A stretch of DNA of 64,000 nt, from positions 1,302,001 through 1,366,000 of the forward strand of contig NC_014374.1 in NCBI RefSeq assembly GCF_000144915.1, read 5' to 3'. The notes beneath the pieces are model-generated. The model searched no databases. It worked only from the letters and a program-made list of their open reading frames with translations, and was not told where the DNA came from. This document shows, piece by piece, positions 21,825-29,421 of the stretch. Source of the stretch: Acidilobus saccharovorans 345-15 (GTDB taxonomy: Archaea > Thermoproteota > Thermoprotei_A > Sulfolobales > Acidilobaceae). Position numbers and translations under genes: made by a program. The first letter of the stretch is position 1, and each line of letters opens with the position of its first letter.

Positions 21825-23876
21825 GTGGACGTAAAGCTAGCGGGCCTCTCGGCGCTGGTTATAGTGCTAGTGATAGTCGCCGGCGCCCTGGGGGTCATGT
21901 ACTCATCGCTTGCCTCAAAGTACTCCAGCCTAAAGTCAAGCTATTCCTCGCTCAAGGGCAGCTACTCCAGCCTAAACACAAGCTACACAAGCCTCAGCGC
22001 CAGCTACTCATCGCTTAAGGGCGAGTACTCCTCGCTGCAGAACATGTACTCAGCCCTTGAGAGCATGTACAAGAACCAGCAGGCTGACGTGGTCCTGGCC
22101 GCAGCCATGAGCCACTGGAACGACATCGCAATAGAGAGCCCCAGCCTGGTGGCCCCGCAGTACCTGTCTAACGCCACGCTGCACTGGATAGGAGGCCCCC
22201 TGAGCGGCGTGTATACTGGCATCTCAGCTATTAACGCGACGTGGAACAAGTTCTTCAACATGTATGAGACCGTCTACTGGTACACCATAGTGCCTCCGAC
22301 GGTCACCCCTGTGTCGCCTGGCGTCTACAACGTCACGGGCTACGTTCAGTTCCTCGTGGCGCCCACGGCGGCACCAATAAACGTGCTGGTGCTCAACGTG
22401 ACAGAGGTCCTGACTTACGTTAACACTTCGAGCGGCTACCTCATAGAGAACGAGGTCTGGAAGGTCAAGCCCATACCTCTGACCGACGTAATTGCTGGAT
22501 ACCCAGGCCAGGAGCAGCTGGCCGAGAGCGCGGTCCTTGCAGACGCTATGAGCCACTGGAACGACATAGCCATAGAGAGCCCCAGCCTTGTTATCATGCA
22601 GTACGCCCCAGATGCGACACTTGACTGGGTCGGCGGACCGCTGAGCGGAGTCTACACGGGAATCCCCGCGATCAATGCAACTTGGAACAAGTTCTTCAAC
22701 ATGTATGAGACCGTCTACTGGTACACCATAGTGCCTCCGACGGTCACCATGATAAGCCCAGTGGAGTACAACGTGACTGGCTACGCCCAGTTCTTCGTGG
22801 CCCCAACCGCCGCGCCTCTTGACATATTCGTGCTTAACGTGACAGAGGTTCTCACCTACACCTACAACTCCAGCGCGGCCTCATTCCAGATAACGCATGA
22901 GGTCTGGAAGGTCAAGCCCATACCGCTTACTGACGTAATAGCTGGCTACCCAGGCCAGGAGCAGCTCATAGAGGGCACCGTTCTGGCCGCAGCCATGAGC
23001 CACTGGAATGAGATAGCCATAGAGAGCGCTCCGCTCGTGATAGCTGAGTACGCTCCCAACGCGACGCTCGACTGGGTGGGAGGCCCCCTGAGCGGCGTGT
23101 ATACTGGCATCTCAGCTATTAACGCGACGTGGAACAAGTTCTTCAACATGTATGAGACCGTCTACTGGTACACAATAATACCGCCCACCGTAACTATGAT
23201 AAGCCCGACGGAGTACAATGTGACCGGGTACGCCCAGTTCTTCGTAGCGCCTACGGCAGTTCCGATACACCCGCTGGTGCTCAACGTGACGGAGATACTG
23301 ACCTACGTCTACAACGAGTCAGCCGCCCAGTTCCAGATAACGCATGAGGTCTGGAAGGTCAAGCCACTGTCGCTCAGCGACGTGATAGCGGGCTACCCGC
23401 CGCAGACATACATAGAGGAGCAGATGGCGCTCGCCCAGGCCTACGCGCACTGGAACGACATAGCAATAGAGAACGCCTCCCTAATAATAACTGAGTACGC
23501 TCCAAACGCCACGCTGCACTGGATAGGAGGCCCCCTGAGCGGCAACTACACCGGTATATCAACGATTAACGCCACCTGGACAAAGTTCGACAACATGTAC
23601 GAGTACGTCGTCTGGTACGCCCTGGTGCCGCCGACGGTGCAGGTCAAGGGTGACATGGCCATGGTAAAGGCCCCGCTGCAGTTCGTGGTGTTCCCGTACC
23701 CAACGGCGTCCAACCCGCACCCGGTTGAGCTGGTGCTCAACGTGACGGAGATACTCTACTACAACTACAACGCGACCGCCATGCAGTGGCAGATAGTCAA
23801 CGAGTACTGGATAGTGCACCCGCTGTCAATATCAGACGTGGCCCCAGGCTACTCGCCTGGCCAGTACCAGGGCTGA
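21825..23876 (+). CDS. Stalked surface protein with four SnoaL/NTF2-like repeats
   Basis: A 683-residue extracytoplasmic protein. Residues 1-27 form a membrane anchor or signal helix; residues about 27-85 are a heptad-like coiled-coil stalk made of repeated SYSSLK units; the rest is four tandem domains of 147-149 residues, each opening with (S/A)HWN(D/E)IAIE and containing GGPLSG(V/N)YTGI and INATW. The fold pattern is that of SnoaL/NTF2-like domains, which bind small hydrophobic ligands. Many NxS/T sites suggest N-glycosylation outside the cell. There is no C-terminal anchor, so it probably hangs outward from its N-terminal helix. Start GTG 21825. The family's function is unknown; ligand binding is inference. 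Confidence 0.75.
   Translation: MDVKLAGLSALVIVLVIVAGALGVMYSSLASKYSSLKSSYSSLKGSYSSLNTSYTSLSASYSSLKGEYSSLQNMYSALESMYKNQQADVVLAAAMSHWNDIAIESPSLVAPQYLSNATLHWIGGPLSGVYTGISAINATWNKFFNMYETVYWYTIVPPTVTPVSPGVYNVTGYVQFLVAPTAAPINVLVLNVTEVLTYVNTSSGYLIENEVWKVKPIPLTDVIAGYPGQEQLAESAVLADAMSHWNDIAIESPSLVIMQYAPDATLDWVGGPLSGVYTGIPAINATWNKFFNMYETVYWYTIVPPTVTMISPVEYNVTGYAQFFVAPTAAPLDIFVLNVTEVLTYTYNSSAASFQITHEVWKVKPIPLTDVIAGYPGQEQLIEGTVLAAAMSHWNEIAIESAPLVIAEYAPNATLDWVGGPLSGVYTGISAINATWNKFFNMYETVYWYTIIPPTVTMISPTEYNVTGYAQFFVAPTAVPIHPLVLNVTEILTYVYNESAAQFQITHEVWKVKPLSLSDVIAGYPPQTYIEEQMALAQAYAHWNDIAIENASLIITEYAPNATLHWIGGPLSGNYTGISTINATWTKFDNMYEYVVWYALVPPTVQVKGDMAMVKAPLQFVVFPYPTASNPHPVELVLNVTEILYYNYNATAMQWQIVNEYWIVHPLSISDVAPGYSPGQYQG
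22110..23873 (+). repeat. Four tandem coding repeats of about 445 bp
   Basis: Unit starts, aligned on the (S/A)HW codons, are at 22110, 22551, 22998 and 23445, giving periods of 441, 447 and 447 bp. All are multiples of three, so copy number can change without breaking the frame. Units 1-3 are much closer to one another than to unit 4, which has KFDNMYEYV in place of KFFNMYETV. Confidence 0.9.
22191..22285 (+). repeat. 95-bp block identical between repeat units 1 and 3
   Basis: Bases 22191-22285 are identical to 23079-23173, including third codon positions, although the flanking sequence differs. A separate 66-bp stretch (22242-22307) in unit 1 is identical to 22683-22748 in unit 2. Such mosaic identity points to recent gene conversion or unequal exchange among the units. 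Confidence 0.9.
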
Positions 23877-23913
23877 GGGGCCCGACTTGGATGACCCAAA
23901 CGTAAATACAGGG

Positions 23914-23922
23914 TCTTTTTTG
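23914..23922 (+). terminator. T-run terminator after the surface-protein gene
   Basis: A TCTTTTTTG run lies about 40 bp after the stop of the SnoaL-repeat gene. T-rich runs on the coding strand are the usual archaeal termination signal. The next gene starts at 23982 on the same strand and would need its own promoter. Confidence 0.5.
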
Positions 23923-23981
23923 TTCTTGCTCAATTCGCTTATTTACTCAGGCCTACATATGACCTCCTGGGAAACCTATGA

Positions 23982-24299
23982 ATGCCTGAGAGGGGCCTCG
24001 GCTTTCGAGACAAAGACCACCTGCTCTGGTGGCTCTTCATCGGCTCGAGGGGAGGGGAGATGAGGCTGAGGATCGTGGAGCTGCTCGCCAAGGGGCCGGC
24101 CAACGCGAACCAGATAGCCGAGGCCCTGGGTGTCAACTACAGGACGGTCAGGCACCACCTGGAGCTCCTTGTGGAGTCCGGCCTGGTGATTACAGAGGGC
24201 CCCAGGTACGGGCAGCTCTACTACCTGTCAAAGGACATGCTTGAGTCCCTGGGGAGGGTGAAGGGGATGGTCAAGGAGGGGAGTCTCAGGTGGCGCTGA
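23982..24299 (+). CDS. ArsR-type winged-helix regulator
   Basis: A 105-residue DNA-binding protein. The winged helix spans about residues 25-95: MRLRIVELLAKGPANANQIAEAL (helices 1-2), NYRTVRHHLELLVESGLV (recognition helix) and a wing around TEGPRYGQLYYL. No cysteine pair is present, so metal sensing in the ArsR manner is unlikely. Starts at ATG 23982. The 3' end overlaps the next membrane-protein gene by 10 bp, giving a regulator/membrane-protein pair like other archaeal one-component sensors. Its targets may be the flanking envelope genes (inference). Confidence 0.82.
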   Translation: MPERGLGFRDKDHLLWWLFIGSRGGEMRLRIVELLAKGPANANQIAEALGVNYRTVRHHLELLVESGLVITEGPRYGQLYYLSKDMLESLGRVKGMVKEGSLRWR

Positions 24300-24583
24300 C
24301 GCTCATGTCATTTTGGAGCCTTGAGATAGCGGTCTCAGTAGTTGGGCTGGCGCTCGCCGCCTACGTGTTCTCATTTTACTACAGCTCAGGCGTCAGGAGG
24401 ACCTCCATAGGGAGGAAGCTAACAGCAGCCGTTGGCGTGTTCACCGCCCAGATGCTGGTCACCATAGCCCTCTCGTTCTACCTTGCCAGGAGGTTCTCAG
24501 CCGACGTGGCGGTGCCAATGCTAGCGATAACGACGCTGGAGGTGGTCGGGCTAACCCTCATCACTCTGGCCGTCAGGGAGTGA
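24290..24583 (+). CDS. Small three-helix membrane protein paired with the regulator
   Basis: 97 residues from GTG 24290, with three hydrophobic helices (about 8-28, 44-64, 72-92) and a conserved-looking basic loop RRTSIGRKL between helices 1 and 2. No family is recognised. Overlap with the upstream winged-helix gene indicates cotranslation; it may sequester or signal to that regulator at the membrane. The 3' end overlaps the convergent DUF4350 gene by 33 bp. Confidence 0.65.
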   Translation: MALTLMSFWSLEIAVSVVGLALAAYVFSFYYSSGVRRTSIGRKLTAAVGVFTAQMLVTIALSFYLARRFSADVAVPMLAITTLEVVGLTLITLAVRE

Positions 24584-25474
24584 CCTCTCCCTAGCTATTT
24601 CTATAAGCTTCTCTCTGTCCCAGTCGGGGTGCAGCCTTAGAAGAGCATCAACCTCGTCCTCTACTTCTTCAGCCGTCGGTGGCCTGGCGTGGTAAAGGAC
24701 AACGACGGCCGTGAGGAGCAGGGCCACGAGGGCCTGGCCCTCCAGCGAGCGGACGAAGTGGAGGGTTTCCTGGGCGAACACCTGCAGCGGGGGGCTCAGC
24801 CAGAGGAACTCAACCAGGTAGGCGTCTGTGCTGTTAATAAGTAGCTTCAAGGCGTTTGAGTTGTCTGCCTGGGAGAGGAGCCCGCCGGAGGCTATGTAGG
24901 GGTCAGAGATCACTATTAGCTTCCCTGCTCCAACCTGCTGATAGGCTGCGACCACATATGACCCATTACCCTCCAGCGTGCCGTTGACGAGGATCCTTGA
25001 GTTAGGGGGCACCTCTATGAGCGGCTCGGCGCCAGGGCCAAGCTCAAGGGGGGAGGCGTTGAAGAGCGCTATCGTGAAGTTCCTGAAGGTCGCCAGCGGC
25101 GCCAGGGGGGTGCCGGCGTTAATTGTCGGGTTGACCACCACGCCCTCCGCGACAGTTATGTTGGAGTTCAAGGACCTGAGGAGCTCGTTAACGCCGGCGC
25201 CCGAGCCTATAACTATGAGCCTCCCGCCCATGTAGAGGAACTCCCTGAGGGAAGAGGCCTCGCCTGCGGTGGGCCTGAGCTCTGGGTCCACAACTATTGC
25301 CACGGTGGCCCTGCCGTTGAGGAGGTCGCCTGGCTGGGGGATGGGAACTAGGTTAACAACGCGGGCCAGGGAAGACCCAGGCTGGTGCCCCCACGAGGCC
25401 CCTATGGCTAACCCCACCGCTACCGCCAGGGCGAGGCCGAGAGCTATGTAGCCCAGCGGGGCCCTGAGCTTCAC
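24551..25474 (-). CDS. DUF4350-like membrane-anchored protein
   Basis: 307 residues: an N-terminal transmembrane helix (about 8-27), an extracytoplasmic Rossmann-like domain (about 35-225) with a glutamine-amidotransferase-like fold pattern (VAIVVDPELRPTAGEASSLREFLYMGG, then LIVIG and LIVISDPY), a second transmembrane helix (about 245-262) and a cytoplasmic acidic tail. This is the layout of DUF4350 proteins, which in many prokaryotes sit beside MoxR, DUF58 and DUF4129 genes. It starts at GTG 25474, overlapping the stop of the DUF4129-like gene by 4 bp (GTGA). Last gene of a five-gene operon. Function unknown. Confidence 0.72.
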   Translation of the reverse strand: MKLRAPLGYIALGLALAVAVGLAIGASWGHQPGSSLARVVNLVPIPQPGDLLNGRATVAIVVDPELRPTAGEASSLREFLYMGGRLIVIGSGAGVNELLRSLNSNITVAEGVVVNPTINAGTPLAPLATFRNFTIALFNASPLELGPGAEPLIEVPPNSRILVNGTLEGNGSYVVAAYQQVGAGKLIVISDPYIASGGLLSQADNSNALKLLINSTDAYLVEFLWLSPPLQVFAQETLHFVRSLEGQALVALLLTAVVVLYHARPPTAEEVEDEVDALLRLHPDWDREKLIEIARERSLPDGQSDEG

Positions 25475-27252
25475 ATCCCCTCGGACCTCCTCAGCTCGTC
25501 GACAAGTTTCTTTATGTTGTTGATGGCGGCCTCATCCCTCAGCCCGCCGTAGGCAACCCTCTCCATGAGGTCGGCAAGCGACGAAAGCCTGTCCGCCAGC
25601 TCCACCCTCCTTGACGCTATGGCTCCGCTCAGCTCTCTAATGGTAGTTGAAGGCAGCACCGGAACCCTGAACTTGCGGCCCATCCTAACCAGCAGGTCCC
25701 AGGCATCGTTAAGCGCGCCGACGGACGCTAACTTCCTTGGCATAAGCGGCGATGGAGCTGTACGACGCCTGCGCAGCGCGTAAAGCAGGGCCACCGCGGC
25801 CGCCACGGGCACCTCGGTGGGCACCGACGCGGCCCTTACACTTTGAGAGTAAGGCGAGAAGGTCGCATTGACCGGGTACATAGTTACGTTAACCGAGAAG
25901 GCCAGCTGGGGCTGGAGTAGCGGAAGTATTAAAATAAAAGACCCCCTGGAAGTCAGGCCGTTAACCTCATTGTCACCGAAGCTTATGCTAAGCCTTGACG
26001 GCACCGGTGATGCGCCAGAGACCACCAGCACGCCGGGCGAGAGGGCCCAGGCGCTTAGCTTGCCTGGCCTGTCTGGAGGCCTATATATGTAGACCTCGGC
26101 TGAAGCCGACGAGGGGGCGCAGCTGCCGTATTGAGAGGTCGTTACGCTCACATTATTGTACCCGGAAAGCCCCAGGGGCACGGTTAGGTTGACCGTCGCT
26201 GTGCCATTGTTTATGACGCCTCCATAGCTAAGGCTGCCCAGGGTAACAGTGTAAGCTGGGCTGCACGAGGCGTTAGAATACCTTATGTAAATTGAAATGA
26301 CGTGACCTGGCATCACTACGGGCGGCCTCACGGAGACGTTAAGGCGTGTCGGGACGAAGCTCAGCTGCCCACACACATATGACGTCAGGCTCCTGTTTAT
26401 TATTAATGACCCGGTCGGGATTACCTTGGCGTGAACGCACTCCATGCCCGACGCGTTGAAGACCGCCTGCAGCCCTACGCTGAAGTAGCCTGACGAGTTG
26501 GAAACAGCTAACACGTTGAGGTCGCCGACGCCCACCTCAACAAGTGCGTTGCCGAGCGGTGAGGACCCGTTCACCAGCACAGTGCCATTTACATAGAACT
26601 TCTGGCCAAGCTTATAGTGAGCGGGGGCCCGCAGGTCTACTGTCACGAGGCCGTTTACCTTTCTGGCCACGGACAGCTGTATAATCTTAAGCTCAAGGTA
26701 ATCCTCCCCCGTGAAGAGGCCCGTCACCCCTAAAGCCCTGTTGACCAGCTTCATAGCGTCCTGGTAGGCCTGGGGACCCAGCTCGGCCTGCTCCGCGTAG
26801 ATATACGACATAAGCGAGTAGATGGTGGCGTTTGCCCTGGCCAGGTACTGGAGGGACAGGTTAGCATAGTACGCGGCGAGCGTGTAGTTGCCTTTGCTGT
26901 AGTAGCTTTGTGACATAAGGTAGTATCCCCCTCCCTTTCTGGTAAGGTTGAGGGCCTCCTCGATCTGGTCTAACAGGGGCTTAAGCTGGGGAATTGTGGC
27001 GAACTCCCTGTAGGCGGCATTGACCGTTGACTCCACCTGTGACGGTGTTGACGCCGAGGAGAGGTTGTTTATGAACCCTTCAGAGATGACGGCAAGAGGA
27101 GCAATGTAATATTGAAACTGGGGCAGCTTAACATGGTTAAAGCTCTGGACGACCCTTGACCTCTCCCATGAGTAGTAGCTGACTGACGCCACTATTATGC
27201 CTCCAACCAGCGCCAGGGCGAGGGCGAGTGCCACGGCCTGCCTAAGGCACAA
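25471..27252 (-). CDS. Large extracytoplasmic protein with DUF4129-like tail
   Basis: 593 residues. A signal or anchor helix (about 5-27) is followed by a helical, TPR-like region (about 60-200, with runs such as YYLMSQSYYSKGNYTLAAYY), then beta-rich Ig-like or carboxypeptidase-regulatory-like domains (about 205-450) with many NxS/T sites. A second transmembrane helix near 475-492 precedes a cytoplasmic domain whose SVGALNDAWDLLVRMGRK and PSTTIRELSGAI match the DUF4129 C-terminal domain common next to transglutaminase/MoxR modules. No transglutaminase Cys-His-Asp triad is seen. TTG start at 27252 overlaps the upstream small gene by 11 bp. Confidence 0.65.
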   Translation of the reverse strand: MCLRQAVALALALALVGGIIVASVSYYSWERSRVVQSFNHVKLPQFQYYIAPLAVISEGFINNLSSASTPSQVESTVNAAYREFATIPQLKPLLDQIEEALNLTRKGGGYYLMSQSYYSKGNYTLAAYYANLSLQYLARANATIYSLMSYIYAEQAELGPQAYQDAMKLVNRALGVTGLFTGEDYLELKIIQLSVARKVNGLVTVDLRAPAHYKLGQKFYVNGTVLVNGSSPLGNALVEVGVGDLNVLAVSNSSGYFSVGLQAVFNASGMECVHAKVIPTGSLIINRSLTSYVCGQLSFVPTRLNVSVRPPVVMPGHVISIYIRYSNASCSPAYTVTLGSLSYGGVINNGTATVNLTVPLGLSGYNNVSVTTSQYGSCAPSSASAEVYIYRPPDRPGKLSAWALSPGVLVVSGASPVPSRLSISFGDNEVNGLTSRGSFILILPLLQPQLAFSVNVTMYPVNATFSPYSQSVRAASVPTEVPVAAAVALLYALRRRRTAPSPLMPRKLASVGALNDAWDLLVRMGRKFRVPVLPSTTIRELSGAIASRRVELADRLSSLADLMERVAYGGLRDEAAINNIKKLVDELRRSEGM

Positions 27253-27484
27253 GGCCCACCACCTTAAGGGCGCTGTAAAGTATGAACGCGGAGGTCACGG
27301 CTGCGGCTATTGTCATCAAGTGCCTGTATCCTCTGGGCTTGGCGTACCAGGCCGCGGGTAAATAGCTTAAGGAGTAGAGCCCCAGGTAAACTCCCAGGGA
27401 CTCCTCCCCGCCTATGACGAGCGCAAGCTCTATGAGGGCCGTCACGAAGAAGATGTATATTAAGAACGCCTCACTTCTGTCCAC
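27242..27484 (-). CDS. Small membrane protein of the envelope operon
   Basis: 80 residues from GTG 27484; a longer frame to 27556 lies inside the upstream gene and is less likely. Three hydrophobic segments (about 6-22, 28-44, 53-76). Its start overlaps the upstream gene's end by 14 bp and its end overlaps the next gene by 11 bp, so it is tightly embedded in the operon. No family recognised; a small accessory subunit of a membrane complex is plausible. Confidence 0.6.
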   Translation of the reverse strand: MDRSEAFLIYIFFVTALIELALVIGGEESLGVYLGLYSLSYLPAAWYAKPRGYRHLMTIAAAVTSAFILYSALKVVGLVP

Positions 27485-28178
27485 CGCTCTCAGCCCCCAG
27501 AGGCCTGAGCTCAACGGCCCAGCCGTCCTGCGTCCTGTAGGAGTCAGCGACCGCAACTGGGACTCCCTTAAGGGAGGCCACCACGGTCGCCCCGAGCAGC
27601 AGCGGGAGGGTCCCGGCCCTGTTCAGCCTGGGCAGGTCATCCATGACAGGCCTCACAGCCTCAAGCACTATGACGTTGCCCCTCTCCTCAAGCCTAATGG
27701 CCTTGGCCATCTCAGACCTCTCTACGACCACCTCCCTGAGGGCTGACTCCATGTCCGTGGAGCTCAGCGGGAGCGGCGAGGGCAGGAAGGCGAGCACCCC
27801 CCTGCGCCCTGCGGGCGACGGGAACAGGCTCTGAGGCGCGCTTCTTAAGGCCCTGGCCACAGCCTCAGGGTCCGCGTCCTCGCTGAGGGGTATGAAGGCC
27901 GCGCACCTCCCCCCGACTGGAGGCATCACTATTGCCTTCCCCCTGGCGTCGGCCTCCTCAAGGAGCGCTTCAAGGTTAACTCCCAGCGCTGAGAGCATGG
28001 ACCTGAGCTGCGGCGGCTGCGGCCTCGGCGAGTCGCCGATCACTATCGCGCTTAGGCCAGCTATGGCAACGCCTATCATGGAGAACGCCAGGGGCCTGTA
28101 GCCTAGCGAGAAGTATGCTATGAGCCCCAGAGCCGCGGCAAAGGCCGTGGTGGCGTAGCCCAGCTCCCTAATGGCCAC
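27471..28178 (-). CDS. Membrane-anchored protein of unknown function
   Basis: 235 residues: two N-terminal transmembrane helices (about 8-48), then a soluble mixed alpha/beta domain (about 60-235) probably in the cytoplasm. The soluble part has a VMPPVGGRCAAFIPL block and a long charged helix. In related archaeal clusters this position is often a DUF58 gene, but the DUF58 signature is not visible, so I leave it unnamed. Start GTG 28178; 45-bp gap from the upstream DUF1616 gene. Confidence 0.6.
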   Translation of the reverse strand: MAIRELGYATTAFAAALGLIAYFSLGYRPLAFSMIGVAIAGLSAIVIGDSPRPQPPQLRSMLSALGVNLEALLEEADARGKAIVMPPVGGRCAAFIPLSEDADPEAVARALRSAPQSLFPSPAGRRGVLAFLPSPLPLSSTDMESALREVVVERSEMAKAIRLEERGNVIVLEAVRPVMDDLPRLNRAGTLPLLLGATVVASLKGVPVAVADSYRTQDGWAVELRPLGAESGGQK

Positions 28179-28223
28179 ACAGTGTCCCAGTGGAGGGCGG
28201 CTAACGCCATTAAAAACACGACG

Positions 28224-28781
28224 TCAGCTCCTCCTCAGGGCCTCCTCGTAGCTGGCCCTCCTGGCCGCTGCAACTAGGATTAGCGCCACGGAGAGGCCGT
28301 CCACGGAAATTAGGGTAGTGTTGACGGTCAGGTCCACGCCTATGGTGACCAGCGTTATTCCTATGATGGGCAGCAGGGACAGGCTCATTGCTATGGCCAG
28401 GGCCGCCTCGTCGAACCCCTTCCACTTCCACTCGGGGTACAGGGCCCTCACGAGGGCCAGGCCGGGTATGTAGAAGAGGGACGGCGCGCCCATGGCGACC
28501 TTTATGAACTCGAGCTGCACTGGCGAGTGGGGCACGAGGAGGGCCGCTACAACGCCAAGGGCTACCCCCAGGAGGGCCAGCCAGGCCCACCACGAGGCGG
28601 GGCTCAGCATGTAAGCTGCGAAGCCCCTGCCCTCGCCCCTGACGTCTATTTCGCCTGACTCCCTCATGGACCACAGGGCCCTGGCGACCTCCTCGCCGTA
28701 GCCCATGGAGCTCGCTATCTCCCAGACGTAAAGCGAGCCTCCCCCTTCCTTGATGGCCCTCCTTATGGCTTCCTCGCTCAA
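28224..28781 (-). CDS. Winged-helix plus DUF1616 membrane protein
   Basis: 185 residues. The N-terminus (about 1-55) is a predicted winged helix on the cytoplasmic side (EEAIRRAIKEGGGSLYVWEIASSMGY...). It is followed by four transmembrane helices with the DUF1616 signature LFYIPGLALVRALYPE (about 105-120) and a helix pair ALAIAMSLSLLPIIGITLV. DUF1616 proteins are archaeal membrane proteins of unknown role, often in surface-structure loci. First gene of the reverse operon, start TTG 28781; divergent from a thioredoxin-fold gene (91 bp apart). Confidence 0.72.
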   Translation of the reverse strand: MSEEAIRRAIKEGGGSLYVWEIASSMGYGEEVARALWSMRESGEIDVRGEGRGFAAYMLSPASWWAWLALLGVALGVVAALLVPHSPVQLEFIKVAMGAPSLFYIPGLALVRALYPEWKWKGFDEAALAIAMSLSLLPIIGITLVTIGVDLTVNTTLISVDGLSVALILVAAARRASYEEALRRS

Positions 28782-28872
28782 CTCTGCCCAGGGCAGAGGG
28801 CTTGGGCGTGCTTAATACCTTAACGCAAAGCGTTTTACTTCGACTAAGGACTCACCTAACTTCAGGGGAGCC

Positions 28873-29421
28873 ATGGAGCCCATAAAGGCCAGAAGGCTTG
28901 GCAGGGAGTCCACGGACGGCGTCTACTATTTTGACTTCAGCAGCGGCTACTGGGTAATGATGGAGGAGTCGGCCTCGCCGCTCATCCCCAAGGAGAGGTA
29001 CTCCCTCGTCTACTTTGACAACACCCTGTGCCCCGTCTGCAGGAGGTACGATTTGCACTGGTACCCGTTCGTTGAGTCAAACCTCGAGAGGCTCAGGGGC
29101 TTCGGGCTTTACGTGGTGCTCTGCGACTGGTTCACGCAGCAGTGCACCTCAGCCAAGGGGGCCATGACCTTCATAGAGTACAAAGTGAGGGCGTCGCCGA
29201 CTACCATGTTAATGCTGAGCGACGGCTCAAAGGTGATATACACTGAGAGGTACGAAGGCCTGCTCACTGAGAGGGACCTGAACAACATAGTCTTCACGTT
29301 CCCGGAGAGGGCCGAGAGGGCGGCCAGGGGCGAGAAGGTCGAGAGGCCCTTAACGGAGGAGGAAATGATAGAACGGCTGTCAAAGACCCTCGCGCAGGGA
29401 GGCGCAGGGGCGAAGCCTTAG
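28873..29421 (+). CDS. Thioredoxin-fold protein with CPVC motif
   Basis: 182 residues with a thioredoxin-like fold: strand YSLVYFDN, redox motif CPVC (Cys53, Cys56) and the cis-proline loop SPTT (Pro109). Two more cysteines (Cys84, Cys91) could form a second disulfide. No signal peptide or membrane segment, so cytoplasmic. An acidic/basic helical tail (about 140-182) is an addition to the basic fold. Likely a thiol-disulfide oxidoreductase; partner unknown. ATG 28873. Divergent from the DUF1616 operon. Confidence 0.8.
   Translation: MEPIKARRLGRESTDGVYYFDFSSGYWVMMEESASPLIPKERYSLVYFDNTLCPVCRRYDLHWYPFVESNLERLRGFGLYVVLCDWFTQQCTSAKGAMTFIEYKVRASPTTMLMLSDGSKVIYTERYEGLLTERDLNNIVFTFPERAERAARGEKVERPLTEEEMIERLSKTLAQGGAGAKP

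What the first reader, a model, noticed from the sequence alone, without database searches (positions are those of the whole stretch)
21825..29421. Envelope-related gene island that may be an undescribed system
In order: a stalked tandem SnoaL surface protein, a winged-helix/membrane-protein pair, then a reverse operon of five membrane proteins (wHTH-DUF1616, unknown with two TM helices, 80-residue TM protein, TPR/Ig-like with DUF4129-like tail, DUF4350) and a divergent CPVC thioredoxin-fold protein. DUF4129 and DUF4350 normally travel with MoxR and DUF58, which are absent here. The tight overlaps show that the five proteins belong together, and no function is known for the set.
Basis: partly seen in the sequence, partly recalled or inferred. 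Interest (0 to 1): 0.7.

Follow-up and report, generated by a model that had tools for sequence, protein, structure and literature searches.

The report
Scattered archaeal MoxR–DUF58 envelope complex
Five adjacent membrane-protein genes are the membrane half of a known but untested archaeal cell-surface machine whose ATP-driven half and one outer domain have moved elsewhere in this genome, so the island is not a new system but a scattered copy of one already predicted.

Summary
The genes are real and in the stated order, but the island is three units. (1) SnoaL–wHTH–membrane protein is its own trio, found without the rest in five relatives. (2) The CPVC protein is a widespread gene, normally elsewhere. 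(3) The five reverse genes do belong together: the same order, followed by MoxR and DUF58, occurs in a same-family genome and, with rearrangements, across Thermoproteota into Methanomicrobiales. MoxR and DUF58 are not missing: they sit as a pair about 260 kb away (C1:89–91 kb), and the detached outer half of DUF1616 is at C1:744 kb. Two near-complete congeners lack all parts; one keeps fragments of the first and last operon genes at the exact site, so it deleted the block. Unlinked parts were therefore lost together. The system was published as a predicted secretion or membrane-remodelling complex (Makarova et al. 2015, PMC5898192). New here: the three-way split and fossil deletion, a confident model of the 235-aa subunit without PDB match, evidence that DUF58 is cytosolic, and an archaeosortase near MoxR in a second cluster type. 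Likely mechanism (function inferred): a cytosolic MoxR–DUF58 motor working on a membrane complex with glycosylated Ig-like ectodomains for surface-protein export or assembly.

The parts
24551..25474 (-). DUF4350 protein (arCOG01314-type): TM, extracellular GldG-like domain, TM, cytosolic tail; 307 aa
   Evidence: Pfam PF14258 49.9 bits; homologues found beside other cluster genes in the fetched loci; six N-glycosylation sequons, all between the TMs
25471..27252 (-). DUF4129 protein: TM, helical-hairpin domain, Ig-like beta domains, TM, cytosolic DUF4129 domain; 593 aa
   Evidence: Pfam PF13559 26.2 bits; AlphaFold model (mean pLDDT 77, pTM 0.41); 17 sequons, all in the outer part
27242..27484 (-). 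tm104/80-aa protein with two TM helices (ORF opens at 27556, likely GTG start 27484)
   Evidence: profile hits in the cluster loci, between tm235 and DUF4129
27471..28178 (-). tm235: two TM helices plus a soluble alpha/beta domain, no named family
   Evidence: profile hits in cluster loci; AlphaFold mean pLDDT 90.7; no PDB fold match at E<=0.001
28224..28781 (-). inner half of DUF1616: winged-helix-like N-terminus plus membrane part; 185 aa
   Evidence: Pfam PF07760 positions 5-122 of 307; alignment; outer half is usually a separate gene in Thermoproteota and lies at G000:C1:744377-744829 here
21825..23876 (+). NOT part of the system: N-anchored coiled-coil stalk with four SnoaL-like repeats; first gene of a separate trio
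   Evidence: trio SnoaL-wHTH-mem97 in five relatives with no five-gene operon beside it
23982..24299 (+). NOT part of the system: ArsR-type winged-helix protein, second gene of the trio
   Evidence: Pfam HTH_5 45.9 bits; synteny
24290..24583 (+). NOT part of the system: 97-aa membrane protein, third gene of the trio; its 3' end overlaps the 3' end of DUF4350
   Evidence: synteny
28873..29421 (+). NOT part of the system: CPVC thioredoxin-like protein
   Evidence: relatives in 126 of 197 order genomes; no system genes beside it in G046, G037, G169, and only remnants in G054

Best explanation
The five reverse genes (24551-28781) are the membrane and outer-domain half of the archaeal MoxR-DUF58-DUF4350-DUF1616 complex (arCOG01314 neighbourhood). 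In this genome the operon has broken into three loci: the five genes here, MoxR-DUF58 at C1:89.3-91.4 kb, and the DUF1616 outer half at C1:744.4-745.3 kb. Shown: membership, the split, intact ATPase motifs, co-loss in relatives. Inferred: a MoxR hexamer and the membrane-tethered DUF58 protein act from the cytosol on the cytosolic parts of tm235, DUF4129 and DUF1616 and, driven by ATP, assemble or switch a membrane complex whose glycosylated Ig-like and GldG-like domains (DUF4129, DUF4350, DUF1616 outer half) stand outside the membrane and handle surface proteins: export, assembly or anchoring of S-layer-type glycoproteins.
For: Order DUF1616-tm235-tm104-DUF4129-DUF4350-MoxR-DUF58 contiguous in same-family G046, and rearranged versions in many other loci; 48 loci with at least four of six core families, in named Desulfurococcales, Nitrososphaeria, Bathyarchaeota, Methanodesulfokora, Vulcanisaeta and Methanomicrobiales records. 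Own genome: one DUF4129, one DUF4350, one DUF58 and one cluster-type MoxR, the last two adjacent. Walker A, Walker B and further conserved residues kept in own MoxR (invariant columns). Split pieces are genuine parts: own MoxR, DUF4350 and tm104 have G046 as best match; own ecto, DUF1616 and tm235 have congener G169. Co-loss: congeners G037 and G054 (99% complete) lack DUF4350, DUF4129, DUF1616, DUF58, MoxR and ecto. In G054 the 421 bp between mem97 and CPVC hold remnants of the DUF1616 start (32.3 bits) and DUF4350 end (28.9 bits) in the right order and strand; best of 1000 random stretches 22.3 and 22.7. Topology: own sequons only in DUF4350, DUF4129, ecto and one in DUF1616; none in MoxR, DUF58, tm235, tm104; DUF58 and tm235 charge pattern is positive-inside. 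A Haloferax DUF1616 protein is N-glycosylated (PMC8241124). MoxR-VWA pairs are remodelling motors elsewhere (abstracts of PMC13036017, PMC9976466).
Against: No member of this archaeal complex has been tested in any source I found. Export/assembly rests on topology, neighbours and the published prediction. In DUF58 only 42 residues match Pfam and the canonical MIDAS DxSxS is not evident. The loci were gathered with DUF4350 and DUF1616 queries, so neighbour counts are biased. G169 keeps ecto-DUF1616-tm235 without a detectable MoxR or DUF58 (84% complete genome). The single-protein DUF4129 and DUF4350 searches are insensitive, so absence in G037/G054 leans on the profile searches (MoxR, DUF58, ecto) and on the deletion scar.
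Confidence: 0.65

Rival explanations
1. A free-standing, undescribed five-protein system that works without MoxR and DUF58.
For: MoxR and DUF58 are not beside the operon; tight gene overlaps.
Against: Cluster-type MoxR and DUF58 are in the genome as an adjacent single-copy pair; both absent in congeners lacking the five genes; contiguous in G046; published.
Confidence: 0.04
2. All nine genes form one functional envelope island, including the SnoaL stalk protein, wHTH pair and CPVC protein.
For: Adjacency in this genome; G054 has the same flanks plus remnants of the operon, so the arrangement predates the split of the two species.
Against: In G046, which has both, the trio is at 275 kb and the cluster at 933-940 kb; trio without operon in G037, G075, G143; CPVC protein elsewhere in G037, G046 and G169. 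No homologue of the SnoaL or CPVC protein in the other cluster loci checked with the window queries.
Confidence: 0.04
3. The complex serves surface glycan or glycoprotein synthesis: a scaffold for glycosyltransferases and glycan export rather than protein export.
For: GT2 glycosyltransferases near 21 of 48 core loci, and in 6 of 12 same-genome loci against 0 of 20 control windows; GT1 and sugar epimerases recur. The own DUF58 gene is next to a GT2 gene.
Against: No glycosyltransferase is constant; about half the loci have none; control set is small; many core operons end cleanly without one.
Confidence: 0.2
4. MoxR-DUF58 is a chaperone that matures a membrane enzyme (as NorQ-NorD or RavA-ViaA do) and the outer proteins are that enzyme's scaffold; no export.
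For: Best-tested MoxR-VWA pairs do this (PMC13036017, PMC9976466, PMC3893208).
Against: No oxidoreductase or metal-binding subunit was seen among the recurrent neighbours that were annotated.
Confidence: 0.1
5. A decaying remnant in this species: the operon is broken up and on its way to loss, as happened in G054.
For: Three-way split here, deletion in G054, partial set in G169.
Against: All eight parts are intact open frames with conserved motifs.
Confidence: 0.1

Closest known systems
Putative archaeal secretion / membrane-remodelling system around arCOG01314 (Makarova, Galperin & Koonin 2015, PMC5898192)
   Same: DUF4350, MoxR ATPase, vWA/DUF58, Ig-like membrane protein, DUF1616 (pfam07760) and small 2-3-TM proteins
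   Different: Here broken into three loci; DUF1616 split into inner and outer genes; sequon and charge data place DUF58 in the cytosol, whereas the paper calls the vWA protein likely secreted
Bacterial MoxR-VWA motors (NorQ-NorD, RavA-ViaA)
   Same: MoxR AAA+ plus VWA-type partner; the MoxR family here matches a solved bacterial MoxR (2r44) over its full length
   Different: Extra membrane subunits with large outer domains; no enzyme client in the cluster
Bacterial MoxR-DUF58-transglutaminase/DUF4129 operons (e.g. bifidobacterial PFNA; details partly recalled, not tested)
   Same: MoxR, DUF58, DUF4129-type C-terminus; PFNA also has a beta-sandwich (FN3) surface protein
   Different: Archaeal DUF4129 protein has helical and Ig-like outer domains, no transglutaminase match
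GldG / gliding-associated ABC components
   Same: DUF4350 shares the GldG-like domain (published HHpred; own hit to ABC_transp_aux is only E=0.049)
   Different: No matching ABC transporter inside the operon

Membership tests
arCOG01314 (DUF4350) predicted archaeal secretion system | DUF4350 protein with N- and C-terminal membrane anchors | tested here: met
   PF14258 49.9 bits; hydrophobic segments at 3-30 and 240-263
arCOG01314 (DUF4350) predicted archaeal secretion system | MoxR-type AAA+ ATPase of the cluster type in the genome | tested here: met
   PF07726 187.7 bits at C1:90888-91277; cluster profile E=1.1e-131; not adjacent to the five genes
arCOG01314 (DUF4350) predicted archaeal secretion system | vWA/DUF58 partner beside MoxR | tested here: met
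   DUF58 gene directly downstream of MoxR; cluster profile E=7.6e-92
arCOG01314 (DUF4350) predicted archaeal secretion system | canonical VWA metal site (DxSxS) in the DUF58 protein | tested here: inconclusive
   own segment is VVDLTATDPESAD; the family shares two Asp columns but no DxSxS; only 42 residues match Pfam
arCOG01314 (DUF4350) predicted archaeal secretion system | Ig-like membrane protein | tested here: met
   DUF4129 protein model and Foldseek matches to Ig/FN3-type domains, E to 1e-9 but low TM-scores
arCOG01314 (DUF4350) predicted archaeal secretion system | DUF1616 protein with outer domain | tested here: met
   inner half in the window; outer half in a distant gene
arCOG01314 (DUF4350) predicted archaeal secretion system | all genes in one operon (usual, not strictly defining) | tested here: not met
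   three loci here
arCOG01314 (DUF4350) predicted archaeal secretion system | secretion or remodelling activity | not testable with these tools
   no experiment known to me
MoxR AAA+ family | Walker A, Walker B and arginine residues | tested here: met
   invariant columns incl. K53, T54, D110, E111, R169 in the alignment that holds the own protein
Anti-phage defence system | match to a defence family beyond generic AAA+ | tested here: not met
   PADLOC: only P-loop matches to MoxR

The most novel reading that the evidence does not exclude
The complex is an ATP-powered surface-protein sorting machine coupled to archaeosortase. A second cluster type carries, usually right before MoxR, a membrane protein matching Exosortase_EpsH in 6 of 7 members scanned, most with a C[ST]G...R...FH triad. 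The MoxR-DUF58 motor would gate delivery of glycosylated substrates to the sortase or another anchoring enzyme; in lineages such as this one the sortase would be unlinked or replaced.
Probability: 0.2. Interest if true: 0.75.

Novelty: new member of a known kind. Interest (0 to 1): 0.42.

Why it matters
A widespread archaeal membrane complex, found from Thermoproteota to methanogens, has stood as an untested prediction since 2015. A genome where its parts are unlinked, beside congeners that lost all of them, makes co-loss informative about which parts belong, without the confounding effect of a shared operon. It also supplies a parts list with domain topology, a confident model of an unnamed subunit and an archaeosortase link that suggest concrete experiments on archaeal envelope assembly.

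Tried and rejected
Profile search of genome contigs with tm235 and with the full DUF1616 set gave no usable pattern; a narrower DUF1616 set worked. NCBIfam gave nothing useful for the core proteins; its SlaB match to the SnoaL protein covers only the coiled coil. PDB profile search for tm235 found only engineered proteins at E 0.008-0.23, taken as chance. Foldseek hits of the DUF4129 protein are generic Ig/FN3 domains. ABC-ATPase neighbours were dropped as evidence because they appear in 7 of 20 control windows. An early iterative 'MoxR' profile picked up ABC ATPases; later counts use a strict MoxR set. Defence role rejected. Single-protein genome searches under-count: DUF4350 33 of 197 and DUF4129 2 of 48, so I do not use them as prevalence.
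Full report
OBSERVATION. The nine genes are present and open as described. Pfam confirms DUF1616, DUF4350, DUF4129 and an ArsR-type winged helix; the 97-, 80/104- and 235-residue proteins match nothing. The five reverse genes overlap or nearly abut. The 683-residue protein is an N-anchored coiled-coil stalk with four repeats; 'SnoaL' is only a sub-threshold match. The genome is a single 1,496,453-bp contig; I recognise that size as Acidilobus saccharovorans 345-15 from memory, not from a tool.

THE MISSING PARTNERS ARE IN THE GENOME. DUF58 and a cluster-type MoxR each occur once and are neighbours at C1:89.3-91.4 kb, about 260 kb away around the chromosome if it is circular. DUF4350 and DUF4129 are single copy too. 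The Pfam family DUF1616 describes one protein with an inner membrane half and an outer half; in the Thermoproteota loci these are usually two genes. The window holds the inner half (profile positions 5-122 of 307); the outer half was found at C1:744,377-744,829, E = 7.9e-39, in a 323-aa gene whose best match is the one that adjoins DUF1616 in congener G169. The system is thus spread over three loci.

THE SAME SET ELSEWHERE. In same-family genome G046 all seven genes are contiguous: DUF1616-tm235-tm104-DUF4129-DUF4350-MoxR-DUF58 (L039). In other genomes of the order the outer and inner DUF1616 genes follow DUF58 instead. A DUF1616 scan of named genomes returned 80 loci; the core recurs in Desulfurococcales, Nitrososphaeria, Bathyarchaeota, Methanodesulfokora, Vulcanisaeta and, with a divergent DUF4129-like protein and reordered genes, Methanomicrobiales. 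Both scans were anchored on a member of the set, so they show what travels with it, not how common it is.

ISLAND BOUNDARIES. SnoaL-wHTH-mem97 is a trio of its own: same order and strand in G054, G037, G046, G075 and G143, with no intact operon beside it. In G046, which has both units, they are more than 600 kb apart. The CPVC protein has relatives in 126 of 197 order genomes and no system genes beside it in the relatives examined; in G169 it adjoins the glycosyltransferase that adjoins DUF58 in the window's genome, a hint that the ancestral neighbourhood included both.

A FOSSIL DELETION. G054 (same genus, single contig) is syntenic on both sides but has 421 bp where the window has 4.3 kb. 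Those 421 bp contain, on the minus strand and in the right order, a match to the first 27 residues of DUF1616 (13/27 identical, 32.3 bits) and to residues 273-295 of DUF4350 (12/23 identical, 28.9 bits). The best of 1000 random stretches of about the same length scored 22.3 and 22.7 bits. The operon therefore most likely stood here in the common ancestor, already without MoxR next to it, and was deleted in G054. G054 and G037 also lack MoxR, DUF58 and the outer DUF1616 gene. Loss of unlinked genes together is the strongest evidence here that they work together. In the family, the 4 of 25 good genomes with DUF1616 (G000, G046, G093, G099) are the same 4 with cluster-type DUF58. G169 is an exception: it keeps ecto-DUF1616-tm235 but no MoxR or DUF58 was detected (84% complete).

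SUBUNITS. tm235: AlphaFold mean pLDDT 90.7; two TM helices, a further helix and an alpha/beta domain; best PDB matches E >= 0.01, none at 0.001. DUF4129 protein: TM, helical hairpins, Ig-like domains, TM, cytosolic helical tail with the conserved T..E...Y (moderate confidence). Own N-glycosylation sequons: 17 in DUF4129 (all outer), 6 in DUF4350 (all between TMs), 9 in ecto, 1 in DUF1616, none in MoxR, DUF58, tm235, tm104; family-wide, sequons are enriched 2.8-fold in DUF4129 and 3.9-fold in ecto and below expectation in MoxR and DUF58; positive charges flank the DUF58 and tm235 TM hairpins on the N- and C-terminal sides, not in the loop. I infer that DUF58 and tm235 face the cytosol, which differs from the published table's 'likely secreted' vWA protein.

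MECHANISM. MoxR ATPases with VWA-type partners remodel target complexes (PMC13036017, PMC9976466, PMC3893208). Transferred here: a cytosolic MoxR hexamer plus membrane-tethered DUF58 act on the cytosolic faces of tm235, DUF4129 and DUF1616, and through them on outer Ig-like and GldG-like domains. The client is unknown. Neighbours point to surface-protein or glycan work: GT2 in 6 of 12 same-genome loci against 0 of 20 control windows, and, in a second cluster type, an archaeosortase-like protein, usually next to MoxR, in 15 loci, Pfam Exosortase_EpsH in 6 of 7 scanned, with C[ST]G, R and FH motifs in most. Whether this genome has an archaeosortase was not tested.

WHAT IS KNOWN. Makarova, Galperin & Koonin 2015 (PMC5898192, section 3.2, Table 2) describe this neighbourhood as a putative novel secretion system. 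No paper in the held library names two of DUF4350, DUF1616 and DUF4129 together; only one names DUF1616, reporting a glycosylated Haloferax member. I found no experimental test of the complex.

VERDICT. A scattered member of an already predicted archaeal complex; the nine-gene island is an accident of neighbourhood. My confidence in membership is about 0.95; in the cytosolic-motor topology about 0.7; in surface-protein export/assembly as function about 0.5.

Noticed in passing
L052:3841-5517, L055:3826-5526, L054:14423-16081, L102:932-2656 and 11 more: Archaeosortase-like membrane proteins (PF09721) next to or near MoxR in a second, reordered type of the cluster, most with a C[ST]G...R...FH triad.
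   Followed up: partly
window 21825-24583; L201, L203, L206, L208, L209: SnoaL-repeat stalk protein, ArsR-type regulator and 97-aa membrane protein form a conserved trio; the stalk protein varies in length between species and long homologues (about 750-840 aa) occur in many genomes of family f11.
   Followed up: partly
L201:9880-10330: 421-bp deletion scar in G054 with remnants of the first and last genes of the operon.
   Followed up: yes
L038:10485-10562: tRNA-Trp directly upstream of the relocated MoxR-DUF58 pair, a possible breakpoint hotspot.
   Followed up: no
L043:597-3986 and about 20 loci: Two unnamed membrane-protein families (about 514 and 374 aa, no Pfam match in the members scanned) run with an ABC ATPase beside many copies of the cluster; possible transporter or glycan module.
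   Followed up: partly
L204:3721-5983: G169 keeps only ecto-DUF1616-tm235, without a detected MoxR or DUF58; a minimal or decaying version.
   Followed up: partly
L243:5885-10346: The detached outer half of DUF1616 overlaps a convergent 1168-aa gene; a homologue of that gene lies near ecto in G169 as well.
   Followed up: no
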